From Golubevia sp. BC0850 (taxonomy: Eukaryota > Basidiomycota > Exobasidiomycetes > Golubeviales > Golubeviaceae): 64,000 nt of DNA. The stretch lies in the NCBI GenBank assembly GCA_012976225.1, contig JAAVVG010000001.1, positions 1,054,001 to 1,118,000 of the forward strand, given 5' to 3'. Position 1 is the first letter of the stretch. Every line of letters starts with the position of its first letter. The translations under genes and the position numbers were made by a program. Shown here one piece after another: positions 22,700 to 58,696 of the stretch. The notes under the pieces are model-generated. The model had not been told where the DNA came from. It did not search any database and saw only the letters and a list, made by a program, of their open reading frames with translations.

Positions 22700-23188
22700 T
22701 TGGGATGGGAGAATATAGAAGGGGTTGATGGAGGATAGGAGAGAGGGGAGGATAAGAAGGATGTCAGCTTGTCAGGCGAGCTTCCAATTTCAGAAGCCCA
22801 TTGGCCAATCAGCATCAAGCTATTGGAGAGATACGACCGACGAGGTGAGGAAGCCTCCTTGTATCATCATTCCAGTCTCTAGAATATCTATAATCTGACT
22901 AGAAGGCTCATCAGTCAGAGCCGCAAGGAGCACAAGTCCTTAGGGCAGACTCAGGCTCAGGCTGGGTCATGGGTGGCAAAAGGAAGCCCCAGAGAAATGG
23001 GCGCTGCCTCTCTCTTCTCGAACTATTCATACCAGCAAAAGGTTGGAAATCAAAGATGAACAAGCCAATCTCGGGGATGTTTGAAGAACCAGGGGGTAAA
23101 AAAGGGAGACGGCGTCGCATAGGACCTTCTCCATATCTACTGCTTTGGCTAATCACTTCTTCCTTCGAACTTCCAATAACGTCCAAAG
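22700..23188. promoter_or_regulatory. Divergent promoter region, HEM3 / SDHAF2
   Basis: A 489-bp space between two genes whose products both serve mitochondrial metabolism. I saw no clear binding site; shared control is only a possibility. Confidence 0.35.
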
Positions 23189-24526: not shown

Positions 24527-27500
24527 ATGAGTACGGATAATTTGAACTTTGAGACAGGCGCCATAGAGGATTATGCAGGTGAGTTGCAACAAGATCCTTG
24601 GATCACAAGAGCAGGGAAAGGATGGAAAGTGTCGTTTGAGAGGGAAGGGGGGGGGGAGGGGGATGCAAGGATGAGGTCGCAACCTATAAAGCTCCTGAGT
24701 CTCAAGCAATTGAGTGACTGGAGAATGAGAAGATTCGGCTAAGCTCCTTTAGATGAGCTCCTACTGTATGCCATCCAGTCTTCAAGGAAGAGAGATCCGT
24801 TTCCTCCTGGCTGCATCAAGAATAGCTAACCAAGCTTTCTACCTTCTTTCCTTCAGGTTGGGAGCCAATTCCAGGAAAGCCACTCGCTCGTTGCATTGGA
24901 AGTGTCAATTCCGATCAATTCTATAAGGCCTTCGTTTCGAAGAGAAGGCCCTGCGTCATTGAGAATACTACAAGTTTAGGTCCAGATTGGAAGGCTGATA
25001 AGTGGGTGAGTACTTCCAGCTTCAAGCTGCTCTAGAACCTTCGTTTGGCTTTTGGAGATATCTTGTTGAATTCAGGAGCTAATCTTGGAAGATGGAAGAA
25101 GTCGGAATCAGGCAGGCGAGACTGTCAGTTGTCTATCTTCTAAGTTCTAACCTCGATTGATTCTCTCGACTCACTCAGACTTCGATGGCACATCTGAGAG
25201 CTCTGGCGGGTTCTTCGACTGTCAAGATTGAACCTATTGGTCAAGCTGGATCTTTCGGAACTTCAGCTCCCAGAAAATCAACAAGTTTTGCTAGTTATCT
25301 AGATCTAATGAAGAACAAGGAGGAAAGTGAGAAGTGGTATTTGACTACTCAATACGAAGAAGAACAAGATGAAGAAGGAGAAGAATCAGGAGAAGAATTG
25401 GACGAAGAAATAGAGAACGGAGATTTAGAAGATAAGATTATTCAAGATTCAGACGAAGAGGAAGAAGCCTTGCAGAGAATGCTAGATCAAGAAACTTCAA
25501 AGAACAACTCCAAATCGAATTCAACACTTCAAATTCAGAACTCGGATGAGGTCATGGAGGACGGAGATGGAAGTTCGGAGGAGGATGAAGAGGAGGACGA
25601 GAACGAGGAAGCTCCACCTTTAGATCCTCTACTCCCAAGCCCTACAGATGCTCTCATCTCAGAATTCCCTCCTCAACCTGAGCTTCTGGGATCTCTGGTT
25701 CTATCGCAGTGCAATCTATGGCTAGGAGGTTGTAAAGACGGAAAGAGCAGTGGTCTGCATCACGACTTTCATGACAACCTTTACGTTTTGGTGAGTCAAA
25801 TTTCCGAAACAGATGGCTTCATGTTGAATTCGCAGAGACTTAACTTTTGCCTTTTGATTTCCTCTCTCTTCTCCTTCAGCTCTCTGGACACAAACGATTT
25901 CTCTTGTTCCCACCTTCAGCTTACAAGTATCTTCATCCCAGAGGAGAAACCGAACACGTTCATCCAAACGGTTTAATCACCTACACCCCTCCAGATACTC
26001 TACCCTATTATTATCCTCAATCTACCTACTCTGGAATTAGAGCAGATGGCCTACCACCTCTAGAAGCAGCCCTTTGGAGACTTTCAGCTAGACGAAGAAC
26101 TCTACAGGAAGCAGAAGACAATGCTGCTAGGCTGAATGGAGAAGAACATAGGGTTAAAAAGCAAAGGAAAGGGAAAGGGAAAATGACTAGTGAGATGGAG
26201 GAAGCTTTGAAAGGAGTTAGGCTGGCGGAGAACGAGCTTAGGTTATTCAGGCTTCAAGAAGATGGATCAGCAGAATTCGGAGTAGGAGGTGAAGAAACTG
26301 ATGAAGAAGAATCGGAAGAAGAAGAGGAAGAGGAGGAGGATGAAGAAGAGGAAGGAGAACCTCAAGAAACTGAAGTCGATTACGAAGCAAGTGATGAAGA
26401 AGAAACAAAGAACTCCTCGATTCCAGCCGATCAAGACGACGAGTCCTCCGACCATTCATCAGTTTCAATTGATTATGCTGAAATGCAAGAGAAAATCGAC
26501 GAATTTCCCCCTGATATTCTAGCTTTGATTTACAAGTTTCATGAATTGGACGATGACGATCAAGCAGGAAAGGACGAGATCAGTGACCTTCTCAAGCCTT
26601 ACATGGATGCAGCTAGGCTAGAGATTACTACCGCTAAAACTCAAAAGAAGCTTGCTTGTGAGACTTCAAGGGGATTCAAGACTCTGGAACAGCTTCATAC
26701 TGCCGGAATCGACTTGGATATTCTACAGTCAATGATTGACGTCGCTGGAGGAGAAATCAATGCAGACGTTCTGGAAGCTATGATGGAGGCTCAGGCTCAG
26801 AAGGGAGGCCGAACGTCTTCAGCTGAGGAGAATAACGAGGAGGCGGAAACCGAAAATCTAGAAGGTGAAGATGACGGAGAAGTCGAAGAAGGCGAAAGTG
26901 GAGAGGAAGAAGATACTGAAGGAGCTGAAAGTGCAGAGGAAGGTGACATCGAAGGAGGTGAAAGTGGAGAGGAGGAGGAAGACGATGAGGGCTGGAGATT
27001 CTTCGATGAAATCGAAAAGGAAAGGATGAGAGAAGAGGACAGAGAGGCTGGAATGAAAGAAGGAAATTACGACACTGGTGACAGTCTAGAGGTCTCAGAT
27101 GATGATGAAGAAGACGAAGCATCGGAACCTGAGATGACTTCTGGGAACGGAAAGAGGAAGCGTGGAGCCAATGGTCATCAAGGTCAAGCTATCAAGGCAA
27201 AGAAAGGAAACAAGAAATCAAAAACTCAAAAGAACCCTTCTCCTGAAGAGGAAGTCAAATCAGACTCATCGATTCCGGTAGATAGCTCTTCGGACGAAAC
27301 CTCGGATTCTGAACCTCTGTTTCCTCCTGGAGATGCTGGCGATGAAGAAAACGAAGAAGACGAAGAAGAAGGAATTGACTGGAAGCTGGTCGAGGAGGGA
27401 GAGGCTTTAGTGAGAATGTTGGGAAACGGATCAGAAGAGAAGGAGAAGCTCAAGGACGAAAAGCAAGAAGAGAAAAATGAGCCTCAAAGTTTCTCCAAGA

Positions 27501-28471
27501 TCAAACCTGAAATTTTACATGCTTTCTTCAATATTCCCAACAATTCGGAACCGGAAATTGAAGTGGAAGAGGAAGAAGCTCCCCTTACCAAAACAGAGAA
27601 ACGTAAACTAAAGAAGCAGAGGAAACAAGAAGCTAGGAAGGCCAGGAGAGGTCAAAAGGAGAAATCGAAAGTTCAAAACGTCAAGGAAGAGAAAGTGACC
27701 GAGAATGTGCCCTTACGTCCTCTCAAAGGTTGTCCAGAGCCTCTAGTAGTAGACCTCAAACCTGGGGAGATGCTCTATCTTCCAGCCTCTTGGTACCACG
27801 AAGTCACTTCATCAGCTGCTCCTTCCGACCCTCAAGACGATGACGATGACAGAGATTCCAACGTCCACATGGCTTTCAACTATTGGATGCACCCTCCAGA
27901 CGCACTTTACTATTACGAAATTGAACCTCTACCACCTGCAGAAGATCTCAAGAAAGGCAAGAAAGGCAAGAAGGTTGCTGAGAACTCTAAAGCTGTCGAG
28001 GCTTCTGCTCCAACACTTCCTGACTTACCAGCAGGTGCTCCTCTCAGATTTGCTCATCGAACTGGATGTCGAGAGTCACCTTATAGAGATGTCGAAGTTT
28101 GGAATGAGATTAGAACAAGGGTTCAAGAAGAGATTGAGAGTTGTAAAAGAAGAGACGTTCTCAGGAGACAAGTCGAAGGATCGCTACTGGCGGCCAAGTC
28201 AAATGGAAAGCAGAAAGGAAGTGGGGATGGAGAGGAAGAAGGGGAGGAAGAAACTGAAAGCTTGGAGGATAGAATTATGGAGAGGTTGGGAGGCTTGAAG
28301 AATGGTCAAGCTCAAGGGAAGAAAAGGGAACGAGATGAGGATCCTCAAGTTGAAGAAGAAGATAGTGAAGAAGAGAAAGCTTTGGAGGAGATACTTCAGA
28401 AGGAGATGGCTAGGAATCGAGGTCATAAAAGTAACGGAGAGAAGAGAAAGAACAACAAGAAGAAAACCTAA
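24527..28471 (+). CDS. JmjC/cupin-8 oxygenase with a very large acidic insertion
   Basis: Exons 24527-24578, 24857-25005, 25179-25790 and 25880-28471 give 1,134 residues. The N-terminal part (GWEPIPGKPLARCIGS, then RRPCVIENTTSLGPDWKADKW) and the Fe(II) motif LHHDFHDNLYVL (His261-x-Asp263) match JmjC proteins of the JMJD7/cupin-8 type, which hydroxylate or otherwise modify proteins using 2-oxoglutarate. Strand LSGHKRFLLFPPSAYKYLHP follows. The third ligand, YLPASWYHEVTSS with His911, appears only about 650 residues later. The gap holds acidic repeats (EEEEDEEEEGEP type), a helical segment (PPDILALIYKFHELDDDDQ to GGEINADVLEAMMEAQ) and Lys-rich stretches. A second acidic insert lies at 130-220. 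The final exon ends in a Lys/Arg tail. Substrate unknown. The first bases upstream (TTG 24515) are not an ATG start. Confidence 0.85.
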
Positions 28472-29451: not shown

Positions 29452-30957
29452 CTAGGGAGAATCATCGAACGTTTCCTTGAATCTAGATCCAGCAACCCCA
29501 ATAGAAGTAGCTCTCTTTAAATCAGCCCCATTCTTGATTCCCTTAGGCAACGGTAAATTCGGATTAGAGCTGCTGTTCAAATAGCTCAACCCCAAAGGAT
29601 TTGGATCTTTGCTCAAATAATCTCTGTCCAAACTTCTCTTAGGTCTCCATTCCTGAGCTTTTGACACATAAGTCCATTCACTTCCACCAACTGGATTGGG
29701 TTCAGGGCTGTGAGTTCCAGCATCTACAGAATAAGATCTAATAGGAGAAGCAACCATGTTGGTAGTCGAAGGATTTCCAATCATTTGAGTAGTCAAAGAA
29801 CCTTTGGATCTGTTTGAAGAAGTTGAAGTTCGAGCTAGAGAAATTGATAAACCAGTTTGCTCAGGTTGAGATTGAGTACCATCACTTCCAGTTTTTGAAT
29901 TTGCTTTGACACCAAACGTATCAGTAGAGACTTTGGTAGTCGGGCTGATTCGATTTCCTGCATCTCCAGAACTTGCATTTGAAGAAACGTTTGTACTGTT
30001 AGTAGAACGTGGAGGAACCGGAGATCTCAATCTAACAACTTCACTTAATTTCCTTCCTAAACCAGTTTTGACGATCGGAGGACTTGGCAAAGGAGGAGCA
30101 GGAGTTAAAACTGCATTGGTAAAGTTGGTTGGAGATTCAGTGCGACCATTTGAACTTGCCGGAGGACTTGCGAAAGGATTGCTATTACTTGTTGCAGTAG
30201 TTGGACTTGAGAATGGATCGTTCGTTGAATTGGAACCCTTTCCTGATTTTAAAGGTGTTGAAGAGGTTGCTGCGACCACGCTCCCTGTCGAATCCTCTCC
30301 TTCTCCCCCTTCTCCTGTAAGCTGATTGAGATTTGATTTTTGAGGAATTGAAGATTGAGAAGAAAAAGTTTGATCTCCAACACCTTCTTGACTTTGACGA
30401 TTGAAACCAGCAGTTGAGATTCTACTTGAATTTTCACCACTTTCTCCAATTACACTCAACATTTCTCTTCTTCTATTTGAATTGTCATTGATGTAATCTT
30501 GATTCACCAAATTCAAATCCCTATTCTCAATCATGATAATTTCTTCTCCCTCTGCATCAGCCAAACCTTTCTCTCTGTCTTCTCTATCCTGCAGCTGTTC
30601 ACTTAAAGCTCTACTCCTCCTGCTCCTACTTCCATCTGAAAGACTATTGACATTGGTGACAGCTCTCAATCTTCTATGTTCTCTCTCTAAATCTCTACCA
30701 ACAGCACTTCTTGAATAAGTAGATTTTACAGAAGTCATTCTAGTTATGCTTGACCTTGTACTTCCCATTCTACTCAATCTCTCTTGTTTCTGTTTAACTT
30801 TTTCATCTTCTTCTAAAACCAAAGTCACATTCCTTAAAGTTGATCTTCGAGATTTCAAGGTCCTTCTTCGTTTATGGAAGTAGTAGAGGATCGTAGGGAT
30901 TGAGATTCCTAGAATGGCAATCGGGATGAAGAACAGGTACCAAAGATTGGATGCCAT
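29452..30957 (-). CDS. Unidentified single-pass membrane protein with long disordered tail
   Basis: One minus-strand exon of 501 residues from ATG 30957 to the stop at 29452. The N-terminus MASNLWYLFFIPIAILGISIPTILYYFHKRRRTLKSRR has one transmembrane helix (about 4-27) followed at once by a strongly basic cluster, so the tail should be cytosolic. The tail is Ser/Thr/Asn-rich with RSxS and NPF motifs (DPFSSP, NPFASPP), which can bind EH-domain endocytic proteins; that role is inference. The open frame continues upstream of the ATG, but this part is pyrimidine-rich leader-like sequence and overlaps the opposite-strand gene, so I start at 30957. Family not recognised. Confidence 0.65.
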   Translation of the reverse strand: MASNLWYLFFIPIAILGISIPTILYYFHKRRRTLKSRRSTLRNVTLVLEEDEKVKQKQERLSRMGSTRSSITRMTSVKSTYSRSAVGRDLEREHRRLRAVTNVNSLSDGSRSRRSRALSEQLQDREDREKGLADAEGEEIIMIENRDLNLVNQDYINDNSNRRREMLSVIGESGENSSRISTAGFNRQSQEGVGDQTFSSQSSIPQKSNLNQLTGEGGEGEDSTGSVVAATSSTPLKSGKGSNSTNDPFSSPTTATSNSNPFASPPASSNGRTESPTNFTNAVLTPAPPLPSPPIVKTGLGRKLSEVVRLRSPVPPRSTNSTNVSSNASSGDAGNRISPTTKVSTDTFGVKANSKTGSDGTQSQPEQTGLSISLARTSTSSNRSKGSLTTQMIGNPSTTNMVASPIRSYSVDAGTHSPEPNPVGGSEWTYVSKAQEWRPKRSLDRDYLSKDPNPLGLSYLNSSSNPNLPLPKGIKNGADLKRATSIGVAGSRFKETFDDSP

Positions 30958-31173
30958 TGGCGGGAGAGGAAATAGCGACCGATCAGCTGATGGAGAGGAA
31001 GAGAATTTTGAAGGAGACTTGTACAGAGAGGATGAATCGATAGATGATGGAATATGAAGTTGTGAAAAGAAGAAGAGGAGAGTTGCGGTCCACCTTCTTC
31101 TCTTGTTCCTGGCTGCTCGATCCAATCCAACCCAGCTCCAGCCTCCACTCAACATTTCATCGAGTTCTCTCAC
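30958..31173. promoter_or_regulatory. Divergent promoter region, single-TM protein / small cysteine-rich protein
   Basis: A 216-bp space. On the minus strand it is rich in C/T just upstream of ATG 30957, as are other leaders in the window. Confidence 0.3.
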
Positions 31174-31738
31174 ATGGAAGAAGTCTTCGGTTGTTATTGC
31201 TGCCTCGTGGCTTCCGAGAGCTGCTTCGAAGCGATCCAGTTCAGCTGTTTCGGGAGGTGTGAGTCCATAGTCCTCATGGCCTCATCCCTCTGCTGCATCA
31301 TGACCTCCCAATCTCGAGTGCTGAACGTTTCTACTCTTCTTCCTGCCCAGATCAACATAGTCCACCTCTCTGGTTCCTCGATTGGATTTGTAGGTGTGAA
31401 TGTTGTTGCGAGGGAGAAGAATATGAGACAGATGAACAAGCTATAGAAAGAACTTCGTTGTTGATTCAATCCAGAATTCAAACTGAAGCACAACGAGATA
31501 CCTCAAACCCAACCATTCAAACTGAATATCGGTCTACAGATCAAATGAAAGTAGCTCAAACTGCCAAACAACAAGATTCCCAAGCAGGTAAAGGATGACG
31601 TTGGTATCTACCTCTTCTCTTCTCCATAAGCCTTTGTACGACTACCCTTGACATTCAAATCTAACAATACCCATTTCTCCATCTATAGTATGTCGAACTC
31701 TCGTCGCTTCCATTCGACAAACACCAAGCAGGAGATAG
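31174..31738 (+). CDS. Small protein with cysteine-rich N-terminus
   Basis: Exons 31174-31256, 31394-31587 and 31689-31738 give 108 residues in frame. The N-terminus is cysteine-dense (GCYCC at 7-11, then CFGRCECCCEGEE across the first splice), followed by a hydrophilic Gln/Thr-rich part (TDEQAIERTSLLIQSRIQTEAQ) and a basic end (CRTLVASIRQTPSRR). The cysteine cluster without a signal peptide suggests S-acylation and membrane tethering, somewhat as in LAMTOR1/Ego1-like adaptors, but there is no MGC start and the resemblance is weak. Exon 2 has good codon character and exon 3 ends cleanly; exon 1 is the least certain. A competing minus-strand frame (31493-31194) lacks an ATG start. Confidence 0.45.
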
Positions 31739-31913: not shown

Positions 31914-34900
31914 CTAGCGACCAGTGACAATGTAATCGAGAGCACGCAAGCTTCTGAGCAAAACAGCTTGAGCGTTCGATGGACTTGCTAAAGCACTGAG
32001 AGCTGGACTTTGGATTCTACTCTGCTGCTGTTGAGCTTGAGTCTGAGCTGCACCAACGGGTGCTCTCTGAACTTGACCATCCGTCTGCATCTCATTGTCC
32101 TCTCCAGTCGAAGCACCAGCGTTCTTGTTCTTACTATCCTCTTCTGCTTCGTCCAAGGCAGCGCTAGGCATTGGAAGGCTCTCCAAGAGTCTGTCCAAAT
32201 CCGAGGCCAGAGATCTGAAAGCTTCCTCAGCTTCGCGACAAAGAGCGTCAGAGATGATGTCTCTACCTCCTGGAATGGTCGAAAGTTGAGCTGCTACCGA
32301 CAAGGTGTTCTGGAATCCTTTCGAAGAGATGGCAGTCGAAAGAGGGCGAACGACGGCAGCTAGACGCTCAGCTGAGATGTGAGGAGCAACAGTGAGACCG
32401 ACGCTGTCGGCAGCTACAGCTGGAGTCAAAGCTGGCGCTGGCTTGTTCTCATTGGAGGCAGTAGCTCCTCCAGCGACAGAAGACCCGCTTGCTTCTCCTG
32501 TCTGTCCGTGGCTGCTCGAGAGCGGCTCGCCGACAGAAGAGCTGGGAGGCTGCGAACTTTCTGCGGCCTTCTTCTTGTCCTCCTCAGATTCAGCGGCCGG
32601 AGCAGGAATGCTGGTGAGAGGCTTCGTCACTATGTTGAGACTGAACGGGTTTGAGAGAGAGTCAAACAGGAAGGGGGTAAGCAACGGCTTTTCTAAAGAG
32701 ACAGCCTCTGGAGGTTTCGGGATCATTTTCACTTACAGAGCAAGGAGAGCATCGACGAGCTGGGAGTTGGCTAGGATGGAATCCTTTCCGAGAAGAGCCA
32801 AGAGGACATTGACTGGAGCATTGGATTTGTCTACCTTCTCTTTGCCTTTGCCCTTCACTTTCTTCTCTGGACGGACGTCCTCTCGAAGGAAGTATTGAGC
32901 CGCCTGCTCGTTTCCGTGGGTAAGAGAATGTAAACATTCGATACTACGAGAGGCGATCAAGAAGGGAGCTTCGTCTCCAGCTCTTGAAAGAGGAGCACGA
33001 TCGAGAGTGGCGCTGGCTGCTCCGAGATCTTGACGAATTCCTGGAGTAGAGTTGTTGCGTTTCGGCGTAGGGCGAGTTGGAGTGTTAGCAGAACTTCCTG
33101 AAGCACCAATCAGCTTGCTAGCGCGCAAGCTCATGGAGGCGTACGACTTGTCTACTGCGTTGGCGTCAGTGATTCCATCCGAGAGGATCATGAGCAGCAG
33201 ACTGAGCAGCTCTCCTCTGGTCTTGCTGTTCTCTGAAAGATTCCCGAGAACTTTATGGAGTCCAGTTTGCTTGCTGTTCATCTGGGGGAAGAAGAGCAGG
33301 CGAACCAAAGTGGCGACTCCTGACTTGTCCAGGAGCTGGATAGCATCACGAGCTGGCAGCTTTTTGGCTGCATTGGCTGAGCTCTCCGCTTGTTGAGCAC
33401 CTGAGCCTCCAGCACGTGGCGCTGAGGAAGATCCACCGTTCGCTTGCTGGCGACGACGAGCTTCCTCTGTGCGACGTTGCTGTCGACGTTGATCTCGGAT
33501 TTCGTCGGCGTAACTTCCAGGTAGACCTTCCAGGAACCCGTCGTCTTGATCCATCAAGACAGCGTCGCGCAAAGCAGGTTCGAGAGAAGCGATGAAGCTT
33601 GCAGGGTCCATCTCTTCGGCTTGAGCTGGCTGGGCTGCTGGAGCTGTTCCTGTTCCTGTTCCACCGCTTCCATTGGCGTTTGCAGAATTCGCTGCAGCGT
33701 CTCTTCCTTCTGCTCTAGCTCGAGTAATTTCTTCCTGACGTTGGCGACGTTGAGCCTCGGCCTGCTCCTGTTGAAGAACCTCAGCTCTGATCTCGGGTGG
33801 GAGAGCATCTAGGAACTCTGGTTCAATGTTGGTCTCAGATGGAGCTGGAGCAGGAGCGGCAGCGGATTGACGTTTCTCTCGGAAGTGTTGGTTGAGCACC
33901 TCTTCTCTCATATCGTCTGGGAGAGCCTCCAAGAACTCTGGATCGATGCCAGTGTCGGTGATGTCAACCTGGTTGCCATTGATCGTGGTCATGATCCTGG
34001 GGGCAGCCGTCTGAGCAGGTGCCTCCGAAGATCCAGATGCTTCATTGGAGTTGGAAGCGGGAGTCGAGCTAGATCCTGAAGGCTCGTCGAGGTTGGCAAT
34101 TCCTTGTTGAAGTGATTCGAGCTCGATGTTTGGCTGAGAGTCGCCAGTAGAAGAGGGATCCGCAGAGGGAGCATCGACGTTCTCTTGAGCGTCGGACATC
34201 TCCACGTCTTCGTCAGATGACTGTTGAGGTCCTTGAGTAGACTCTGAAGTTACTTGAGGAGCCTGAGCAGCAGCAGAAGCAGCTTCTTCTTCTTCTTCTG
34301 CTCGCTTCTTTTGGGCGGCCTGTGCTTCCTCTAGTTGTTGTCTGAAGGAACTCTCCTCCTTCCTGGCTTCCTGGAGAAGTATCTCTGATTCCTTGAGCTT
34401 TCTCTCGGCCTCCTCCCTCTGTTTGAGAGCCTCATCCAGCTTCTTCTTCGTCTCAGCCTTCTCCTTCTCCTTCTTCTCTGCAGCAATTCGATCGGCTTCT
34501 TGTTTGCGCTTTAAGGAAGGGAGGAGAGCGTTGACTAGATGGTGGCGAAGCCTAGTGGCACGCTCGGTGACCAGAGCCCCGTGGACGACTCTGGACTCTT
34601 CGGCCCAGCGAGTGGAAGTCGACATCGGAATGAACTCCTGGACAGCGGCGACGGGGTCGCTTCGAGCTGCTTGTTGACGTTCCATTGGCTCGCGACGACT
34701 GTTCCTTCTTGACATTCCAGGGAGTCTCCCGCCTTCAAGAAGACGATTGAGTTGGACAGGAGCTCCATCTTGACCTTGAGCGGTCAATTCAATACGGAAG
34801 TCTCCTTGATTGGCAGCCGGTCCTCCTCCGCCTGGTCTGCCTAGAAGCTGTTCTAAGAACTGCATAGCTCCACCACCGACCAAGTCTTCGATCGACTGAA

Positions 34901-37900
34901 CCCACTCTTGATACGAGTTTCCTCCAGGTCCACGACGAGACCTATTGACAGAGCGAGGATCTCCTCCGTGACCGGCTCCTTGGCTTTGATCGACGAGAAG
35001 TGGGTGAGAGGGAATGTCCTCGGTGACAACAGCTGATTGACGACGAGGAGCACTGGCAAACATGAAGTTCCCATCAGGATCGACAAGGCGATGGCGTCTT
35101 GCTGCGCCTGCTTGAACCGGTTCTCCTGCAGGCGATCCGAAGAAGAAGCTGGGTGGCATGCCTCCTCCAATCGAACCTCTGGGAAGCGGGGCATCACCAG
35201 CTCCACGAGCAGTCCATCCCCAGTTGGCTCCGAATCGATCTTCAGGTTGATTCCCTCCGGCGACGAGCTGATCCTCTGCAAGCTCGAGCTGAGCGAGCTC
35301 TTCGTTTTCGTAGAATCCAGCTTCGTCTTCGGATCCTTGATCGTCATCCTGATCGTCTCCCTCGTCATCCTCATCTTCAGAGGCTAGAACGTGCATGGCG
35401 TGTTCACCATCTTCGTCCAATCCAGCTTCGACAAGACCATCGATCATGTCTTGAGGAGGATCTCCATCTCCGAGGACAAAGTCGAGAGCTTCGATGTCTC
35501 CGGCGCTTCCTTCATCGTCCTCGTCATCCTGGAAAGCGAGAAAGACAGAAGGGTGAGTTGAAAGAAAGGAAACCTGTCTCAAGAGAGACCGAAACACCTA
35601 CCTCGTCGAACCATTCCGCCTCTGGGTCGTCATCGTCCATGTCCTCATCTTCGATTCCGTCCATATCCTCATCTTCATCGTCTCCATCTTCATCATCCTC
35701 GTCGTTCTCATCAATCACTTCGACGACACTCATTCCTTCGGTCGAAGACTCATCACTATCGAAAATTTGAGGAGAGAGAGAAAGGGTCAGCCTCGCCTCA
35801 AGATCGCACGCATCTCTCTCTCACGGCTACCACCCATCGACGAGACTCACCTAGCGTCACTTCGATCCGAACCACTGGAATACTCTTCCATCTCTACATC
35901 ATCTTCATCCTCATCCATGTCATCGTCAGAGTCATCAGGATCGTGAATAGATTCCATCTCTCCAGTGTGCATTCCAAGACTTGAATTCCTGTAGAAGTCA
36001 GGAGTGGCTTCTCTTCCGGTTCCGGCGATGTTTCCGTCTTCGTCCAACTCCTCTTCATCATCCATGGAGCCGTAGTCGGTAGATTCATCGTCCTCATCGG
36101 AGAAGTCGAGAGGGTGGTGAGCTCCTCTGCTACTGAGAGCAGCTTTGGCTTTGTCCGCGACTCTTTCCGCCTTTCCCATCTTGATAGCGACTTTGGTCAG
36201 ATGCTCGAGAGGTCTCAAGATTCCATCCAGAAGTGTCTTGACTGAGGGTAGGTTCAGATCCACGTCAGCTAGAGCTCCAGTCAAGATGGTGACGAAGTTC
36301 TTCTCGAGCATCGTTTTGGCCATGTGAAGAGTAAGATCCTCGACCTGCTTGGCAGAACCAGAACCTCCATTGGGACGGGCAGTCAAGAGACGGTAGCAGA
36401 GATCAGCCAAAGCGTAGAGCCTTCCGTAACGAATCTCGATCGGCTCAGAGGCAGTAGAAGCGTCTTTGATGGCTTTAGCGATGCCGTCCAAAACGAAGCG
36501 TCTGACGTTGGCCAACTCTGGAGCCACCTCCTTGATGTCAGTGTGGATAGTGACGTCTGCGCTCAGCGCTACGATGACTGACATGGCCCAATTGGACTGA
36601 GCCATTCTCTTGCGAAGCTCTGCCTGTTCGTAGGACTGAAGGAAGCCCATTGGGACCAACTCTGCGAGGAAGAATCCGAGAACCCCAGATCCTCTCGGCT
36701 TGACGGGAGTGGCAGCAGAGAAGTCCTTGACGTTTCCAAAGAGACGCTTACGAGTGAAGCTGGTGAAGGAAGACTTGCAACAGGAGTAGGAAGAAAGAAG
36801 CTCGGTCAAGCACTGCATGATGAAGGAGGTGTAGAGGTAAGCTCCGTCTCCATCTCCGCTGCTCTTCTCTTTCTCCTTCTCTTCAGCTGTCATTGATGCT
36901 GCTTCTCCTGACTTGGGAGCTTCCGTGGCGTTTCCTTCTACCTTGGATCCCTGATCTGGTTCAGAAGAGGTTGGGTTCGTCTCGGTTGAAGAAGTAGCCT
37001 TCTTGAGAGCTGCAGCTGCTTCGGATTCCTTGGAGACTCTGAGCAGCTCAGTGAGCAGGAATTGCATGACTGTGTCGAGAGTCTCGGACGTAGCAGCAGC
37101 TGGCTTGGTCGCGTCTGCCATGTGAGAGTCAAGTTCTTGAGGAGCGGTAGAGAACGTGACCTTGGTTGGAGAAGCTGGCATCTCCATCGTCTCGTCACCG
37201 ACATCAGCTGCAGGAGCTGGATGTTTGATAGAGCCTTCTTTGGAATTGATATCCCCCTCTGTGGAAGACTGGATGGCTCTGACCAGACCGGAGCCCGTGA
37301 TGCTGTTGTAATCGAACATCTCCATCTCAGCAGCGGAAGCCTTCAAGAAAGCGTTCGGGTTCCTGAGAGATGTTTGCTGGAGAGAGCGAATGACAGTGGA
37401 CGTATCGATCTTGGAGCGAGGATTGGCAGCTGAATTCAGCCAGCTCTTGACCTCTTGATTCATTGTGAGCTGTAGATTCTCCTTGTCCTCGATGACGTGA
37501 CGTAGGATGAGAATCACGTAGACCTGACAACCAGCGACGTCCTTTGGAGAATCGGTCAAGAAGGGCTTGAACATGGCTGGAATGCCTCCATCCTTGACGA
37601 ACTTCTCAGCGCAGACAGGTCTACGAGTGGTGAGCATGACGAGTCGGTAGAGAGCCAAGAGCGAGTCACGTTCTAGAGGCGAATCTGCAACCTTCTTCAA
37701 CCACTCGAGAGACTGAGATTGCAGAGCGTTGGTCTCCCATCCTAGATAGGAAGTCTTGGTCGCCGATGGTTCGGCCTCTTCAGAAGCTGATGGGTCTTCC
37801 TTGGACTTGGCCTTGACCTCTGTCGTGTCTTCCTCCAGCCCAAGGACGGCAGAGGCGACCAAGAGCGTAGAAGAGAACCAGCGGGAGGGTTGAGACTTGT

Positions 37901-40900
37901 CCCAGAGTCCTGGAAGAAGATGAGTGACCGCTGAAGCGATGGCAGTGATGGTCTCCTGATCCATGTGCTTGAGGACGTTGGCGTCGTTGTCGTGAAGCAG
38001 CAAAGCGAGAAGACGCAGGCGAACGCAGAGAATCGATTCTGCTTTGCTTTCGACGTGAGGCAGCGAAGGGACGGCTAGGGTCGAGGCCCCTTCCCTTGGA
38101 TAGGCAGCACGAAGTTGCTCGATCAGAGAGAGAATTCCAACTTTGGTCTTCTGAGAATCGGTTGAGACCAAAGCGAAGGCAGCACGAGCGTCGAAGACGA
38201 GGTCCTCGTGGAAGTCGGCTAGTTCGAGTGTTCTCTTGGTGAGATTCTCACGAATCTTCTCTCTTCCTTGGTCCAGAGCGGCCTTCTTGGCTGCGTCTGC
38301 CTCCTCCTTTGACTTTCCGTCAGCTGCTGGTGGAGAAGGTGAAACTGTCGTCGTTTCCACGTTCTCGGCAGCTGCTTCAGCATTCGTCAATCCAGTAGCG
38401 TCCTCCATGTTGACGTCAGCTCCAGAAGAGGCGACGACGGGAGCCTCAGAAGAAGAACCTTCAGCGTTGGCGTTGGAGCTCGATCCTTCTCCACCGCCAG
38501 ATCCTGAAGCATTGGTCTCAGCTGGAGTGCTGGAGGCATTTGAAGCAGCGTTGCCAGTGTCGTATTCAGCGACAACTTGGGGATTCTGAGACGAAGAGAA
38601 AGACAGAAAAAGAGAAATGAGAAATCAGAAGTCGGTAGACTGAACAGCTTTCAAGAGTCCATCGCCACTCGAACAATCTCAAGAAAACTCACAGTGAGTA
38701 GGAACTCAGCAGCAGCACTTGTATTGTTAGCAGTCCTCCTCAAAGCGAAGGTGGAGGGACCTCGAGGGAATCCCATTTCCATAAGCTGGGTGATCCTCTC
38801 TTCGTCGGGTTGAGTAGGCGCTCTAGGAGCCCTCGCTCCAGGCGGACCAGCAGCAAGGGGACCTGCAAGGGAAGAGAAGAGACTTCCAAGCCCTGCTCCA
38901 GCGCCGCTTCCACCAACTCCAAGTCCGAAAGGACCCATCGAGGCTGAAGCAGGTTGAGGCTTCTTCTTGACGATTTCAGGGTCGGCGTTGAGAATCTGCA
39001 GGACCGTTTGAATGGCAGAGCGATTGACCGAGAGAGGAAGACCAGGTAACCAGCTCGATTCCCAAGTCTCTTTCAAAACTGGGAAGACCAGACTCCTGAT
39101 GTGAACCAAGTAGGAATGTGGCTCGAACGTCGTCTCAGGATTCTGGTTGGCGGAGTCTTCAGGATTCGTCAAATGGTTGAGATACGAAGATCCAAAGTAG
39201 CCAGTGGAAGTGACCAGGTTCTGCAACAGGTTCAGAGCCACCTTCAATCCACCGCAGGCATGACCCAAGAGCAGACGATCTGAGGGATCCTTAGGAGAGG
39301 AGACGACGGTAGTTCCATCCGAGTGTTTGGAGACCTCTTCGCTATAGTTCCTGTAGACTGAGAAGAGGAGATCCAATCCTCCTTTCTTCTCGAAGGGAAG
39401 CAAGATCAGAAGGTTCAGATGAGAAACCCCAGAGCTTCTCTCATCCCAGAGCAGACTCATCGCTCTACCAATCATGATGGTAGCGTAGGCGAAGTTGTGA
39501 GCTTGTACAGCGGAGCCTTTCCATTCCAGACTCTTGCAAAGCATCGAAGCCAAAGATTCGGAAGTCTGTGACGACGCTTTCTTGTGAGCTGTGTCTGTAG
39601 TCCTGCGACCTATGAGGATCTTAGAAGTCTCTTGAAAGAACATGTTAAGAGAGGATGGGATGGAGGAGATGATGTGACGAAGAAGCTGTCGATTCTGGTC
39701 TTGAGGTCCTGCTGCTCTATTCGAGATCGGAGTAGAGTTTTCTTGAGCATCGACCTGTCCAGAAGGTGTGCTTGCATCTGGTAGAGATTCTAGAATGTCT
39801 GCGGGGGTTCCAGGACCAACTGAAAGAGAAGAGTCGTGTAACGAAGCAGGATCACTTGATGGGGGCTGCTGCTGAGCTCCTGCTCCAACGTCGTCAGCTC
39901 TTCCCTTGCCTTTGACGTCGCCTGTAGGAGCGGAAGGGGCAGCCGGCTCAGCAGCCTTGAGGAGAATCTTCTCCCAGACGCAGGCTCTGTGGACCTCTCC
40001 CAGCTCCTCGACAGTAACAGTGGCTGCTGCAGTGGTGCTGCTGCTTCCATTCAAAGTCTGAAGGAAGGTGGTCGGCATCTTGGTTCCAACGTATGCGAAC
40101 GTCTGACAGATGTCAGCCAATACCTGAGTACGACTTCTAAGACTGATGAGCCTACTCAGGATCTTGTTCCCTTTCTCCAGGTCCTCGTCAGAGGTCGGCG
40201 TGATGAGATGAAGAAGTTGAGAGTTTGGAGATGGCGCGTCCCAATCCCAGACGCTCTTCGTCTCAGCTACCGACTCCTTCAAGTCGACGAGCATGGCGGT
40301 GATTACGCTCTGAGAACTGACTTCGGTCATTAACCTGATGAGAGTGGCCAAAGAGTCGGCAGCCATCGAGTTGGAGAAGTTGTAAGGGAGACATGGAAGG
40401 GAGTAGAACTTAAGGAGCTTCGTGAGACCATCGGCTTTGAGGAAATCCTTCCAGTGAGAAGTGGTTTGGAACAGACCTTCCAAGAAGCGAGCGGTGATGT
40501 CCATGAAGGCTACTACCGGGTTGTCTGCGATGACTGGCGGCTTGCGTGAGTTCTCCACCTCGTCCGTGATCACGTCGGCAATTGGAACAGGCTCTTGAGC
40601 TCGATTGTCACCAGCAGCAGCAGAAGATCCACTGACATCGGTCATGACCGCATCTCCAGTGGAAGTGGAAGTGGAAGTAGTAGGAGCGACTGAAGCTTGG
40701 TCGGCAGATGGAGTTAGCTCAGTCAGCTTGAGACGGTAATTCTTTTCCTCGTCCTGAGTGGGCTTGAACTCCTCTCCAGCCTTCTTGATCTTCTCCATAG
40801 TGACAAAGATCTGATCCATAACGCTCTGCTTCATAGAAGGCTGATGTCTGATGAGCTCGTCGATCGACTGACCGATCATGCTAGCGTTGTCTCTGTCTTG

Positions 40901-43433
40901 CAAGACTTTGATGTGACGTTCAGAAGTGAAGAGGTCGAACAACTTCGGATAGAGAGGCTTTGAGTTGACCAGGTCGAGCCCTGCTTGATTGAGACACAGA
41001 GCACCGATGGCGTTTGGAATTGCGATGATGACTTCGTAGTTGGATTCGATGTCGCACTCTACCAGGTCGAAAAAGGTTTCCGGAAGCTTAAGTTCTTGGA
41101 TGATCGTAAGGGCAGTTGGCTCGTTGTGGATGAAGGTAGCCATGATATTGATCGACAAGGCTACGATTTGAGGACCAAAGACTCTTCGATTCTCCATCAT
41201 CTTCTGGACCGACTTGGGCAGAGAACCGTCGATGAGATTCCTCAATCCTTCCGAGGTTCCAGTAGAAGACATCATGTGAGAGATTGATTTCAACATGTTC
41301 CTCAGAAGGGAAGCTCTTCCGAAGGCTAGCTTTCCGTAGAGATTGTCTGCTGAGGGTTGTCCTGAATCTTCCATCTGCTCCTGAGCATCTTTAATGTCTC
41401 TATTGACCTCCTCTTCGATTCTTCCGACCAAGATGTCTAGTCCTTTGGCGTTACAGAAGAGACTGAAAGAGGTTGGGAAGGCGTACAAGACGCTGTCGAC
41501 CAATCCGATAGCTCTGGAGATGGTTCTCTGGACCATGTAGGTGTCAGGTTTTCCAATCTCTAGCACTTGAACCAGCAGAGGAATCAAGCCAGCGTTGACG
41601 ATCATGGAACTTCCGGTAGCAGTGGAGGTGATGAAAGCGATAAACCCGAACAATGCGTCGACGAGGTGATCTCCAGACTGGGGCGAGTCGGTGGCTAGAT
41701 CGTCGATCACGTTCTTGAGGAAGTGAAGTAGGATTCCATGATTGACAGAGGCGTTGACTGAGTTCAGGACTTCAGTCAGCTTGGACCTGTACCTCCCCAA
41801 TCCGTCTAGAGCGTAGAAGGCAGCGCTTTGGATTGGCTCGTTGAGCTTCTTGGAAGGATCCGCCAACGAAGCTGTGCGTTGAACGACATCTGGTTCGTAC
41901 AGGAAGAGCTGTGTGTTGGCTAACGATTCAGGGACAACATGGGCTATAAAGGAGAGAGAACGAGAGAAAGACAGAGACATGCAAGCAATTAAAATCAGCA
42001 CCTTCATCCTGTGATTTTGACGCTCAACGATCTTCCGGAAGAACCACAAGCTCAACACTGTTCGATCACTCACAGTAACAAGCTACAGCTAGCAATCTAA
42101 CCACTAGAAGTTGCTTCCTCGTCTGAGGGTCACTCAAACCCATAGCGATTCTGATCTTCTGAAATAGCTCGAATTGATCTTCTTTTGGGATTGAGTGTTG
42201 TTCGATTGCATCGGCCAAGATGTCTACAGAAGACTTCCCCAGTTCCGAGACGTTTCCAAGCTCAATTGTCGTGATTCCCTCTTGCTGATTCGAGGTGGAA
42301 GTCGAAGCGTTTGGATTGGAGGAGCCAGCGAGCGGAGTGTTGAGATTAGAAGCAGAAGAAGAAGTTTCGATTACATTAGATCTTCCATCCCTTCCTCTTG
42401 GCCTGACAGGAGTGTTGAAGCTAGAAGGATTGCCACCTTCCTCAACTGCGCTTCCGCTTGGGACAGCAGCATCAGTTTCCGCTCCAGAAGCTCCTGATCC
42501 AGATCCTGCTCTTCTGTAGAATTGAAACCTGACACTCTTCAGCTCATTTGGGACCACCAAGTCTGGGTTGGCGACATCAGTTAGAGTGGTGCCGTGTTCT
42601 CTGGGCGGCCAAGTGACTGCTAGAGTTGAAAGTCTATCGTTGGAGATACGCCACTCGTGACGAGAGGAGGATCCGGAAGAGTAATTCTGAGCTGGTCTCA
42701 AGATCAAACGAAGTGCAGCCTCGAGGACATCTAGGTCTCTGGTGAACAGTAGATCGTTGAGATGCTGCGAGAGGGAGGAGGGAGGGGCGGGAGATTAGAA
42801 TAGCTCTACCTCCAAATTGCATCTTGTACCCTTGACCTTTTCAACTGAATTACCATTCCCACTTTCTGAGGTTCCTGATCACAGCACTCTACTCACCTCG
42901 TATGAGGAATACAGCTTCCTGTTGGTGCAATTCTCGATCAGCAGCCTGCTGAACCTCAAAACAGAAACCAGTAACCTCTTTCTGTTGGGAGTAAATTCAT
43001 TGATTTGGATTGAAGAGAATGCAGTTCCATTTGCAGTGACTGGAGGATTGGAAGAAGAGTCCTTTAATTGATAGTCTTTACACGTCTCTTCTAAGATGGA
43101 ATCGAATCTGTTCAAGGTCTGAGTCCAGTAGTGAAGATCTCCTCTGGGCCAACACCATTCAGAGATGGAGTCTAGCACAAGTGGAAGTTCATCATCTGAA
43201 GATGAGGCAACCTTTTCCAATAATCTGTCTACTTCTGGAGCCTGTGAGCGAGCGGAAGGAGGGAAGGTTAGAGAGGAAGAGGAGGAGGGTTAGATGCTTG
43301 CTGCTGCTGCTTGCTGCTACAAGACTCTCTTTGCATCCCTCTCACCAGCCCAAAATCGAATAGAGAAAACATGTATTAGACCTGTTCTACTCACGGCTGG
43401 AAGTAGCTTCTTTGGAGTCTTTGTGATTTTCAT
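31914..43433 (-). CDS. TOM1/HUWE1-like giant protein lacking the HECT domain
   Basis: Eight minus-strand exons: 43433-43395, 43241-42897, 42764-42074, 41943-38693, 38585-35851, 35755-35602, 35528-32737, 32640-31914; 3,577 residues. The start MKITKTPKKLLPAAPEVDRLL and the block NRKRLLVSVLRFSRLLIENCTNRKLYSSYE match the DUF908 end of TOM1. DUF913-type armadillo sequence follows through exon 4, then a UBA domain (ERITQLMEMGFPRGPS, about 1400-1440), and acidic linkers in exons 5-7. UBM-type motifs (FLEALPDDMREEVL and FLDALPPEIRAEVL) and the block LLDKSGVATLVRLLFFPQ correspond to the DUF4414 region. Tom1 and HUWE1 normally continue for several hundred residues to a catalytic C-terminal HECT domain. 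Here the frame stops at 31914 after SLRALDYIVTGR with no good donor. Promoter shared with CUL4. Confidence 0.9.
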
Positions 43434-43768
43434 GGCGCTCCAAGCGCAAAGGGTTTTGAAAGTGGAGCCCGGTGAGAGCTGTCTTTAAAGGTCTTGAGGA
43501 AGTAAGGTTGGGTGATGTTACTGAAGTAATGTTAGATGTCAAAGCTTCTTGATTCTTGATCCAGCTTTCCCTCTTCTATGAGATTTAAGAGGGAATGGGA
43601 TTGGGAAGAGAAGGGAAATGAGAATAGACGCGTACCAATGAACTCGCTGGGTGACGATGCTGATGACATTCTCTTCTCTTTCCCTTTTCACTATTTGCAT
43701 AAAAGCTTGAAAAGTCGAAGAGAATTCTTATCTAGAGAAGCAACTCACACCTCAGCGACAGAGAAAGA
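43434..43768. promoter_or_regulatory. Divergent promoter region, TOM1-like / CUL4
   Basis: A 335-bp space between two ubiquitin-ligase genes transcribed outward. No specific motif was recognised. Confidence 0.4.
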
Positions 43769-46615
43769 ATGTTCTCTACAACCAGATCCGCCAACCCTCT
43801 CTCCTCTTGGTCATCTCACCCTCAACCCGTCACTTCCCCATCTTCTTCTTCTTCAACACCTACTAGTGGTCTAGCTTCTCTTTTACTTCAATCTCGACAG
43901 TTCAATTCTCTTTCAAAGTCAAGCTCTACCTCCAAAGGCAAACCAGCTCACTTTCAAGTTCAAGTTCAAGTCTCTGATTCATCTTCCACCTCTCCTTTGA
44001 TTCAACCTTCTGATGCCAACTTGGTCAGATCGATCAGGGTTCTTTTGAATTCCCCAACTTCCAAATCACCTTCTCAACTCACTGGGTCTCTTCAATCTTT
44101 GATCAATGATACTCAGCAAATCGTCCAATCTTCATCCCCGAACCCTAACTCCGCTGTTCGTTGCTCCGGGCTCTATGACAAAGTTCAGATGGAGATGGAG
44201 AAGGCAATTGGTCAACTTTTCAGATCTCTAGAATCAGATGCTTCTTCTTCTGGTCCAGAGGCTGCAGGCGGTAGGAACTGGCTCGAACAGCTGAACACAG
44301 GCTGGTTGGAATGGTGCGATCGCTGTGTGAGTATGGGTCCCCTTTTGACGCTGCTTTCTCTCAGAGTTCTCTGCTGAACTTGCGGTCGTTTCTTTGTCTA
44401 TGCAGTCTCTCGTGTGCTCGGTTCTGCTACCTTTGGACAGGCAATACATTTTACCTAGAGCTCCTCGTCTCCTCTCTCTTTGGGACCTATCCTTGGATCT
44501 GTTCAAGCACAAGATTCTTCTCTCGGATAGCCTTCAAGCAAAGCTGTTTGACCGTGTTCTCTCATCTGTCAATGCTCAGAGAAACGCCAACTCGATCGAC
44601 TCGACACACTATAAGTCCCTCCACCTATCTTTGCTCTCCATGATTCAAACCCTCAACTTCTATCAACCTTTAAAGGAGAGAATCTTGAAATCAACCAAAG
44701 ACTTCTACGAGATTGAATCCAAGAAATCTATCGAAGATTTGGAAGTCGATGGATACTTGACCAAAGCCTGGGAGAGAATTCAGCAAGAACAGGCCATGTC
44801 GAAGTGGATCTTTCTCAGCGGATCGAGTCAAGATGCAATCAAGAAAAATGGTGAAGAGGAGAATGACAAGATTGTTTACACCGAGCTCATCGGTAAACAT
44901 ACTGAAGTGCTAGGGAAAGGTGAGTGTGGAACCCACTCCACTCCGCCACTTTTCTCTCGATCTGACCTGGCTCTTCCTTTCGTGTTTCAGGTCTACCTAA
45001 ACTTCTCTCTTCATCACTCCGCGAATCCCTTTCCCTGATGTTCACTCTGTTCTCCAAGGTCAACGCTCTACCTGGACTCAGAGCTGTCTTCTCAACCTAC
45101 ATTCGTAGCACCGGAGAGCTGATCGTGAAAGACAAGGAAAGAGACGAGGAAATGATTCAAAGATTGTTGGACTACAAGACTTCAATCGACTCAATTGTCT
45201 CTGAATGCTTTTCCAGTCATGCAGATTTCCAGTACACTATGAAAGAATCTTTTGAGAAGATCATCAATCTAAGAGATGCAAAGGTTTCAGAACTCATCGC
45301 AAAGTACTTGGACGTCAAATTGAAATCTGGAAACAAGAGTATGACAGATCAAGAATTGGAGAAGGTTCTTAATGAAGCTCTGATTCTCTTCAGATACACC
45401 AAGTCTAAAGATATGTTTGAAGAGTTCTACAAGAGACATTTCGCAAAGAGGTTACTACTTAACAAGAGTGCAAGTTCAGATGCAGAACAAAGTATGCTGT
45501 TAAAGTTGAGAGAAGAATGTGGTTTCCCTTTCACCCAGAAGTTGGAAACTATGTTGAAGGACATTTCGCTATCCGAAGATATCATGAAGTCATTCGAATT
45601 GTCAAGTGAATTTAAGAATAGTCAAACCGAATTCGATCTAGGTGTAAACGTCTTGACGTTGGCTCACTGGCCAACTACCTACTCTACTTCCAATGCTAAC
45701 TCAAAGTCAACTACCTCGACCGAAGGAAACATCATCATTCCAAGTGACATGGCTATGGCTGTTGATTCCTTCGAAAGCTTCTACAAGAATAGGAACTCGG
45801 GTAGAAGACTTCAATGGCAGCACTCTTTGGGACATTTGACTCTCAAAGCTCATTTCCCAAAGGTCGGGGAGAAGGAACTCTTCGTATCGACCTATCAAGC
45901 TATCATCTTGATGCTCTTCAATGAGGAATTGGACGACGTTGACTCGAAGGGCAGTGGAAAGAAGTTGAGCTACAAGGACATCGAGGAACAAACTGGTCTT
46001 GGTAAGTTCATTCCTCACAAGACTTCTCCATGCGGAACCGATCCTCACTTCCATCCCTCATCTCTTTTCTCTTCCAAAGACCCAGTTGACTTGAAGAGGA
46101 ACCTTCAATCTTTGGCATGCGGTCAAATTCCAACTCGAGTCTTGCGTAAGAATCCGCAAGGAAAAGAAGTCGAAGAAACCGACGAATTTACCTTCAACGA
46201 GGGCTTCAAGAATGATAGGCATAGAATCAGAATCAATCAGATCCAAATGAAAGAGACTGTGAGTTCGGATTCGATTTTCATGTTTACGAGTTCGACCCGA
46301 TCTGAGATCTGACTTTTGTCCCTTATCCCTCTCTCTGCTCACTTCCACCTTCTTCACCAGGCCGAGGAACAAAAAGCAACAGAAGAGAGAGTCTTGATAG
46401 ATCGTGAGCTAGTTCTTCAAGCTGCTGCTGTCAGAGTCTTGAAAGCAAAGAAGAAAATCAAACACACCGATCTCATCAACGAAGTCGTGGATGCTATTAA
46501 GTCAAGATTCCAACTGGATGTTGCAGAGATCAAGAAGACCTTCGAGATTTTGATTGACAAGGAGTACATGGAGAGAGTAGACGGAGAGAGAGGTGTTTAT
46601 CAATATTTGGCTTAG
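43769..46615 (+). CDS. CUL4: Cullin-4 type scaffold of CRL4 ubiquitin ligases
   Basis: Exons 43769-44326, 44406-44919, 44991-46001, 46080-46258 and 46361-46615 give 838 residues. Cullins hold the RING protein RBX1 at the C-terminus and a substrate adaptor (DDB1 for CUL4) at the N-terminus. Cullin repeats are visible in exons 2-3 (LPLDRQYILPRAPRLLSLWDLSLDLF). The cullin homology domain contains GRRLQWQHSLGHLTLKAHFP, LQSLACGQIPTRVL and FKNDRHRIRINQIQMKET, which are closest to CUL4 rather than CUL1 or CUL3. The neddylation site lies in AVRVLKAKKKIKHTDL (Lys782), and the protein ends with the classic winged helix and YQYLA. The Ser-rich first 60 residues are an extension. Adjacent and divergent to a TOM1-like gene. 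Confidence 0.93.
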
Positions 46616-58496: not shown

Positions 58497-58696
58497 CACT
58501 GCTCGATAGGAATAGAGTAGAACAGAGCTTTGATTAGTGGGAAGTGTCTGGAGAAGTAGGATCGATCATCTGCTGCCCAACCACAAGCCACCCAATTCTC
58601 ATCACCTCTTTTAAACTTCAAGAAATTGATATGCTTTGGAGAATCTACGTTTCAACAAACTTACATCAATCTTTTACCAGCTCTTGCCTCCGAACG
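58497..58696. promoter_or_regulatory. Divergent promoter region, HEM15 / SLX4
   Basis: Only 200 bp separate the two starts. An upstream in-frame ATG at 58631 for SLX4 lies within it. Confidence 0.4.

What the first reader, a model, noticed from the sequence alone, without database searches (positions are those of the whole stretch)
31914..43433. TOM1/HUWE1-type giant protein that ends before the HECT catalytic domain
All upstream TOM1 hallmarks are present in one 3,577-residue frame (DUF908, DUF913, UBA, UBM motifs, DUF4414 region). The frame then stops at LRALDYIVTGR. In Tom1 and HUWE1 this point is followed by several hundred residues and the HECT ligase domain. The next 950 bp downstream on the same strand contain no HECT-like sequence before an unrelated gene, and a different gene lies on the opposite strand. 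The protein would therefore be a ubiquitin-binding scaffold without E3 chemistry, or the HECT half has become a separate gene elsewhere (gene fission). The frame is otherwise intact over 10.7 kb of coding sequence, which argues against decay.
Basis: partly seen in the sequence, partly recalled or inferred. Interest (0 to 1): 0.8.

Follow-up and report, generated by a model that had tools for sequence, protein, structure and literature searches.

The report
Giant Tom1-type protein missing its HECT
A fungal stretch of DNA carries a giant protein of the Tom1/HUWE1 kind with its substrate- and ubiquitin-binding parts but without the catalytic end that makes such proteins ubiquitin ligases; whether that end is now a separate gene, was lost, or was cut off by the assembly cannot be settled from this sequence alone.

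Summary
An eight-exon minus-strand gene (43433-31914) encodes 3,577 residues with DUF908, DUF913, a UBA domain and three UBM stretches and ends in one TAG. Its last ~150 residues run co-linear with human HUWE1 3577 to about 3738 (Z 4.9, 0 of 1000 shuffles as good; not significant in phmmer by itself). About 636 residues, with the whole HECT domain, are therefore missing.

No HECT was found in the 64 kb on either strand. The best of 1,585 ORFs of 25 aa or more scores 5.7 bits, and the best tblastn hit 24.3 bits against 65.5 for a control. Full-length HECT domains in the 60 rows shown score 182 bits or more. Coding signal ends at the stop, and no GTRNGT donor lies in exon 8. A nonsense mutation, one frameshift or an ordinary overlooked intron cannot explain this: the DNA is not in the window.

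Why is open: no genome, reads or relatives were available. I favour a split Tom1 with a relocated HECT gene (0.42) over an assembly misjoin (0.33) and real HECT loss (0.2). Kluyveromyces split-Doa10 is a proven precedent for a split fungal ubiquitin ligase, but its halves stay adjacent.

The parts
31914..43433 (-). Tom1/HUWE1-like gene, eight exons (43433-43395, 43241-42897, 42764-42074, 41943-38693, 38585-35851, 35755-35602, 35528-32737, 32640-31914), 3,577 aa
   Evidence: Spliced model with seven GT-AG introns, one terminal stop; phmmer to HUWE1 and TOM1
41705..42770 (-). DUF908 (interrupted by intron 42073-41944)
   Evidence: Pfam PF06012, 135.4 bits and 77.9 bits in two exon frames
40379..41518 (-). 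DUF913
   Evidence: Pfam PF06025, 341 bits
38696..38806 (-). UBA domain
   Evidence: Pfam PF22562 29.4 bits and PF00627 24.1 bits, both above cut-off
35244..36011 (-). Acidic stretch, residues about 2301-2500, up to 66% Asp+Glu in a 50-residue window (contains two introns)
   Evidence: Composition count; position comparable to the acidic loop of Tom1/HUWE1 described in PMC13196369 (passages)
33492..33944 (-). Three UBM (ubiquitin-binding) stretches, starting near residues 2934, 2976 and 3050
   Evidence: Pfam PF14377, 102 bits, 3 stretches; motif positions; aligned with TOM1 and HUWE1
31917..32411 (-). Last 165 residues, of which about 153 are co-linear with HUWE1 3577 to about 3738
   Evidence: Semi-global alignment, Z 4.9, 0 of 1000 shuffles as good; the same block is only -2.5 bits in phmmer
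31914..31916 (-). TAG stop; in-frame coding score falls from about +0.1 to +0.5 upstream to about -0.76 just behind it
   Evidence: Codon log-odds in 30-codon windows; no GTRNGT donor in exon 8 or the 59 nt behind it
29455..31281 (-). Next long ORF downstream on the same strand: unrelated protein, no Pfam family above cut-off, hydrophobic segment near 30950
   Evidence: Pfam scan; translation

Best explanation
The gene is the N-terminal part of a split TOM1. A break in the disordered loop that in HUWE1 follows residue ~3738 separated the solenoid and ubiquitin-binding part (kept here, 3,577 aa) from the last helical repeats plus HECT (about 636 residues in HUWE1), which would be a separate gene elsewhere in the genome. 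The two chains would work as one ligase: this chain closes the substrate-binding ring and offers UBA, UBM and acidic loop to substrate and ubiquitin, the other docks on its end and carries out E2-to-cysteine-to-lysine transfer. Shown: gene structure, domains, place of the break, absence of HECT from the window. Inferred: that the second gene exists, that the chains associate, that the pair is active.
For: Intact 3,577-residue frame with all upstream Tom1 domains. The break lies after a helical block and before a Ser/Gln/Glu-rich stretch of HUWE1 (3730-3853 as verified), a place that would leave two foldable pieces (inference). A TOM1-type HECT gene is listed in 34 of the 35 fungal rows shown of Marin's Table 1, so outright loss would be unusual (PMC5913265, section 6). 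Precedent: DOA10, another fungal ubiquitin ligase, is split in Kluyveromyces, and both fragments are needed and sufficient for activity (PMC3464245, abstract and sections 7 and 9). HECT surveys start from the HECT domain (Marin's Methods), so a HECT-less half would not be seen by them.
Against: The second gene was not seen: it is not in the 64 kb and the genome could not be searched. In the Doa10 precedent the halves lie 303-512 bp apart, whereas here nothing HECT-like follows for 31.9 kb, so a relocation must be assumed as well. No relative with the same end was found. The match of the last block to HUWE1 is weak by itself (-2.5 bits).
Confidence: 0.42

Rival explanations
1. Assembly artefact: the contig is misjoined or has lost at least 1.9 kb close behind 31.9 kb, and the organism has an ordinary full-length TOM1.
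For: TOM1 with HECT is nearly universal in the fungi tabulated. Marin treats HECT proteins with missing domains as mostly wrong annotations or truncations and counts 33 of 204 'full-length' TOM1 sequences as potentially truncated or with doubled domains. A join to anonymous DNA would stop within 4 codons in 20% and within 8 codons in 32% of 98,960 start points of this window, so the short tail is unremarkable. No reads could be checked.
Against: GC and codon position 3 show no step between left and right genes: GC3 0.255-0.521 in six left ORFs, 0.288-0.500 in five right ORFs, 0.475-0.567 in the gene, though a join inside one genome would show none. No repeat of 16 nt or more that spans the junction. 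Coding signal ends at the stop and not some way before or behind it.
Confidence: 0.33
2. True loss: a deletion or rearrangement removed the HECT end, and the remaining 3,577-residue protein acts as a ubiquitin- and substrate-binding scaffold, or competes with other ligases, without E3 chemistry.
For: HECT was not found in the window while the ubiquitin-binding modules are kept. One fungal row of 35 shown in Marin's table has no TOM1 HECT at all.
Against: The HECT-linked function is very conserved in fungi; no kept role for a HECT-less TOM1 was met in the searches made (listings only).
Confidence: 0.2
3. A strain-level defect: a recently broken allele, not typical of the species.
For: A recent break would leave the upstream frame intact, as seen.
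Against: Nothing specific; only one sequence is available.
Confidence: 0.05

Closest known systems
Fungal TOM1 / animal HUWE1 (HECT E3 ligases)
   Same: DUF908, DUF913, UBA and UBM in this order; the order of 37 of 204 fungal TOM1 proteins in Marin 2018 apart from HECT, taking DUF4414 as the older name of UBM (recalled); acidic stretch and helical end block
   Different: Ends about 636 residues before the end of human HUWE1; no HECT, so no catalytic cysteine
Kluyveromyces split-Doa10
   Same: A large fungal ubiquitin ligase gene broken into pieces, with the break between folded parts (abstract and sections 7 and 9 of PMC3464245)
   Different: Doa10 is a RING-CH membrane protein; its two ORFs stay side by side with a 303-512 bp insert (values given for three species) and both were shown to be expressed and to associate. 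Here only one half is known

Membership tests
TOM1/HUWE1 family (by descent) | DUF908 followed by DUF913 at the N-terminus | tested here: met
   Pfam 135/78 bits and 341 bits; start aligned with HUWE1 residue 1
TOM1/HUWE1 family (by descent) | UBM (ubiquitin-binding) repeats in the C-terminal half | tested here: met
   Three stretches, 102 bits; aligned with TOM1 2331-2399 and HUWE1 2966-3047
TOM1/HUWE1 family (by descent) | Helical blocks between UBM and HECT | tested here: met
   Two blocks aligned with TOM1 2433-2525 (27.6 bits) and 2539-2640 (9.3 bits); last block only by shuffle test
HECT E3 ligase | C-terminal HECT domain with catalytic cysteine | tested here: not met
   Pfam none in the protein; tblastn best 24.3 bits, phmmer best 5.7 bits over the window
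Split (two-gene) ubiquitin ligase of the split-Doa10 kind | Second gene with the missing half in the same genome | not testable with these tools
   No genome held; not within the 64 kb
Split (two-gene) ubiquitin ligase of the split-Doa10 kind | Halves adjacent, separated by a short insert with a promoter | tested here: not met
   No HECT in the 31.9 kb downstream
Split (two-gene) ubiquitin ligase of the split-Doa10 kind | The two chains associate and are active together | not testable with these tools
   Needs an experiment

The most novel reading that the evidence does not exclude
A lineage of fungi runs TOM1/HUWE1 as a two-chain ligase: a 3.6-thousand-residue ring without catalysis and a separately encoded HECT arm. 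The HECT arm could then be supplied in varying amounts or be shared, and a one-chain giant E3 would have become one with an exchangeable catalytic subunit, as in cullin-RING ligases.
Probability: 0.3. Interest if true: 0.75.

Novelty: new variant of a known kind. Interest (0 to 1): 0.45.

Why it matters
TOM1/HUWE1 is treated as one chain in which ring and catalytic arm are joined, and the review seen reports that the contact closing the ring is needed for activity (PMC13196369, passages). A natural split would show that the covalent link is dispensable and would mark the loop before the last repeats as a usable cut point. It would also show a blind spot: family surveys that begin with the HECT domain cannot see such halves (Methods of PMC5913265). 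If it is an assembly fault, it is of no biological interest.

Tried and rejected
Rejected: a nonsense mutation or single frameshift near the end. HECT was not found in any frame downstream, and the three frames behind the stop close within 20, 41 and 17 codons.

Rejected within the window: an overlooked intron leading to HECT. No GTRNGT donor lies in exon 8 or the 59 nt behind the stop, while all seven introns of the model have one; weaker donors were not scored, but no HECT acceptor exon was found.

Considered and dropped: the ORF 31502-31197 in the Tom1 frame, where one 30-codon window scored +0.24 at 31319 (against my picture of a clean non-coding end). It has no Pfam match and follows in-frame stops.

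Led nowhere: relatives in genome contigs (2 scans) and viral contigs (2 scans): 4, 196, 2 and 101 pattern stretches, none confirmed. These collections are prokaryotic and viral, so this says little. The fold of exon 8 from a single sequence: mean pLDDT 47.8, not usable. Repeats, Rfam (none), tRNA (none), bacterial promoter/terminator patterns (not applicable to a fungus). A regular expression for the HECT active-site region in six frames found nothing (motif recalled). Papers: searches showed no report of a split or HECT-less TOM1/HUWE1; only listings were seen apart from the papers named in the report. PMC11353290 was a false lead (it only excludes proteins without HECT).

Full report
What is there. 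On the minus strand, 43433-31914, eight exons with seven GT-AG introns give a 3,577-residue protein with one terminal stop. Its start aligns with residue 1 of human HUWE1. Pfam finds DUF908, DUF913, UBA and three UBM stretches. An acidic stretch (residues about 2301-2500, up to 66% Asp+Glu in 50 residues) lies before the UBM stretches; PMC13196369 describes an acidic loop of Tom1/HUWE1 that recruits histones (passages). By phmmer the best solved relatives are HUWE1 (E 2.5e-61) and yeast TOM1 (E 8.9e-60). Descent from TOM1/HUWE1 is not in doubt.

Where it stops. After the UBM stretches, two helical blocks align with yeast TOM1 2433-2525 (27.6 bits) and 2539-2640 (9.3 bits) of a 3,276-residue chain whose HECT match is 2852-3268. 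In HUWE1 the last block of our protein is co-linear with 3577 to about 3738. phmmer gives this block -2.5 bits, so it is not significant there; a semi-global alignment of the last 165 residues scores 54 against 20.2 +/- 6.9 for shuffles (Z 4.9, 0 of 1000). HUWE1 ends at 4374 and the HECT query used here begins at 3954. About 636 residues of the HUWE1 plan are therefore missing.

The missing part is not nearby. tblastn with the HUWE1 HECT region over both strands of the 64 kb gives at best 24.3 bits, E 0.41, for 35 residues; a 100-residue HUWE1 DUF913 control finds this gene at 65.5 bits. phmmer without filters over all 1,585 ORFs of 25 aa or more gives at best 5.7 bits, E 0.6. With the same query, chains that hold a full HECT domain score 182 bits or more in the 60 rows shown of 77, and fragments with only the C-terminal lobe 112-261 bits. 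HUWE1 3730-3953 gives at best 20.4 bits, but that stretch is poorly conserved and its absence proves little. Pfam on 36 ORFs (30 of the 85 of 120 aa or more, six shorter ones near the 3' end) found no HECT.

The end looks like a true gene end. The codon score in the gene's frame is between +0.12 and +0.55 in the 30-codon windows that lie within exon 8, about 0 in the one across the stop and -0.76 in the next. One later window in the same frame reaches +0.24 (31319), in an ORF without Pfam match. No GTRNGT donor lies in exon 8 or the 59 nt behind it. So the stop is not a point mutation or frameshift in front of a surviving HECT; DNA for at least 1.9 kb of coding sequence is elsewhere or gone.

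What cannot be told. No genome is held for this window; scans of prokaryotic and viral contigs found no relative. Composition does not point to a foreign join: the gene is richer in G+C than both flanks, and left and right genes overlap in GC3; but a misjoin within one genome would not show. For 98,960 start points outside the gene region a reading frame meets a stop within 4 codons in 20% and within 8 in 32%, so the short tail behind the last helix is only slight evidence for a natural end.

Reading. Marin's table of fungi lists a TOM1-type HECT gene in 34 of the 35 fungal rows shown (the text speaks of 38 species; PMC5913265, section 6). If the sequence is right, the HECT half more probably exists as a second gene than not at all. 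Kluyveromyces DOA10 is a precedent: a fungal ubiquitin ligase split in two, with both fragments required for activity (PMC3464245, abstract, sections 7 and 9). There the halves lie 303-512 bp apart in the three species with stated values; here they would have to be far apart, which makes a rearrangement, or a misjoin, the likelier cause. The proposed mechanism, ring chain plus HECT chain, is inference. For the one-chain enzyme the review reports that the contact closing the ring is needed for activity and that a hinge lies next to HECT (PMC13196369, passages).

Prior knowledge. Marin collected sequences with HECT-domain queries (Methods), so a HECT-less half would have been missed; of 204 'full-length' TOM1 proteins, 134 and 37 had the two main orders and 33 were potentially truncated or had doubled domains. 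I met no report of a split or HECT-less TOM1/HUWE1 in ten paper searches; subscription journals and preprints are not in that library.

Verdict. Real in the sequence as given, unusual, and undecided between a split ligase, an artefact and a loss. New variant of a known kind if real.

Noticed in passing
43736-46309 +: A cullin gene, closest to CUL4A/CUL4B among solved structures (ORF 44966-46309), lies head-to-head with the Tom1-like gene: a second ubiquitin-ligase scaffold next door.
   Followed up: partly
20036-22771 - and 57588-58565 -: Two haem-synthesis genes, porphobilinogen deaminase and ferrochelatase, lie within the same 64 kb.
   Followed up: no
58538-59961 +: An ORF with an Slx4 domain on the opposite strand next to ferrochelatase; the two long ORFs overlap by about 28 nt at their 5' ends.
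   Followed up: no
25161-28468 +: Two overlapping plus-strand ORFs both match Cupin_8 (JmjC-like), probably exons of one gene.
   Followed up: no
31197-31502 -: A 102-residue ORF in the Tom1 frame behind the stop with one window of positive coding score and no Pfam match.
   Followed up: partly
32736-42082 -: The Tom1-like gene has higher G+C (0.51-0.55 in the exon frames) than most other long ORFs measured on either side (0.41-0.51).
   Followed up: no
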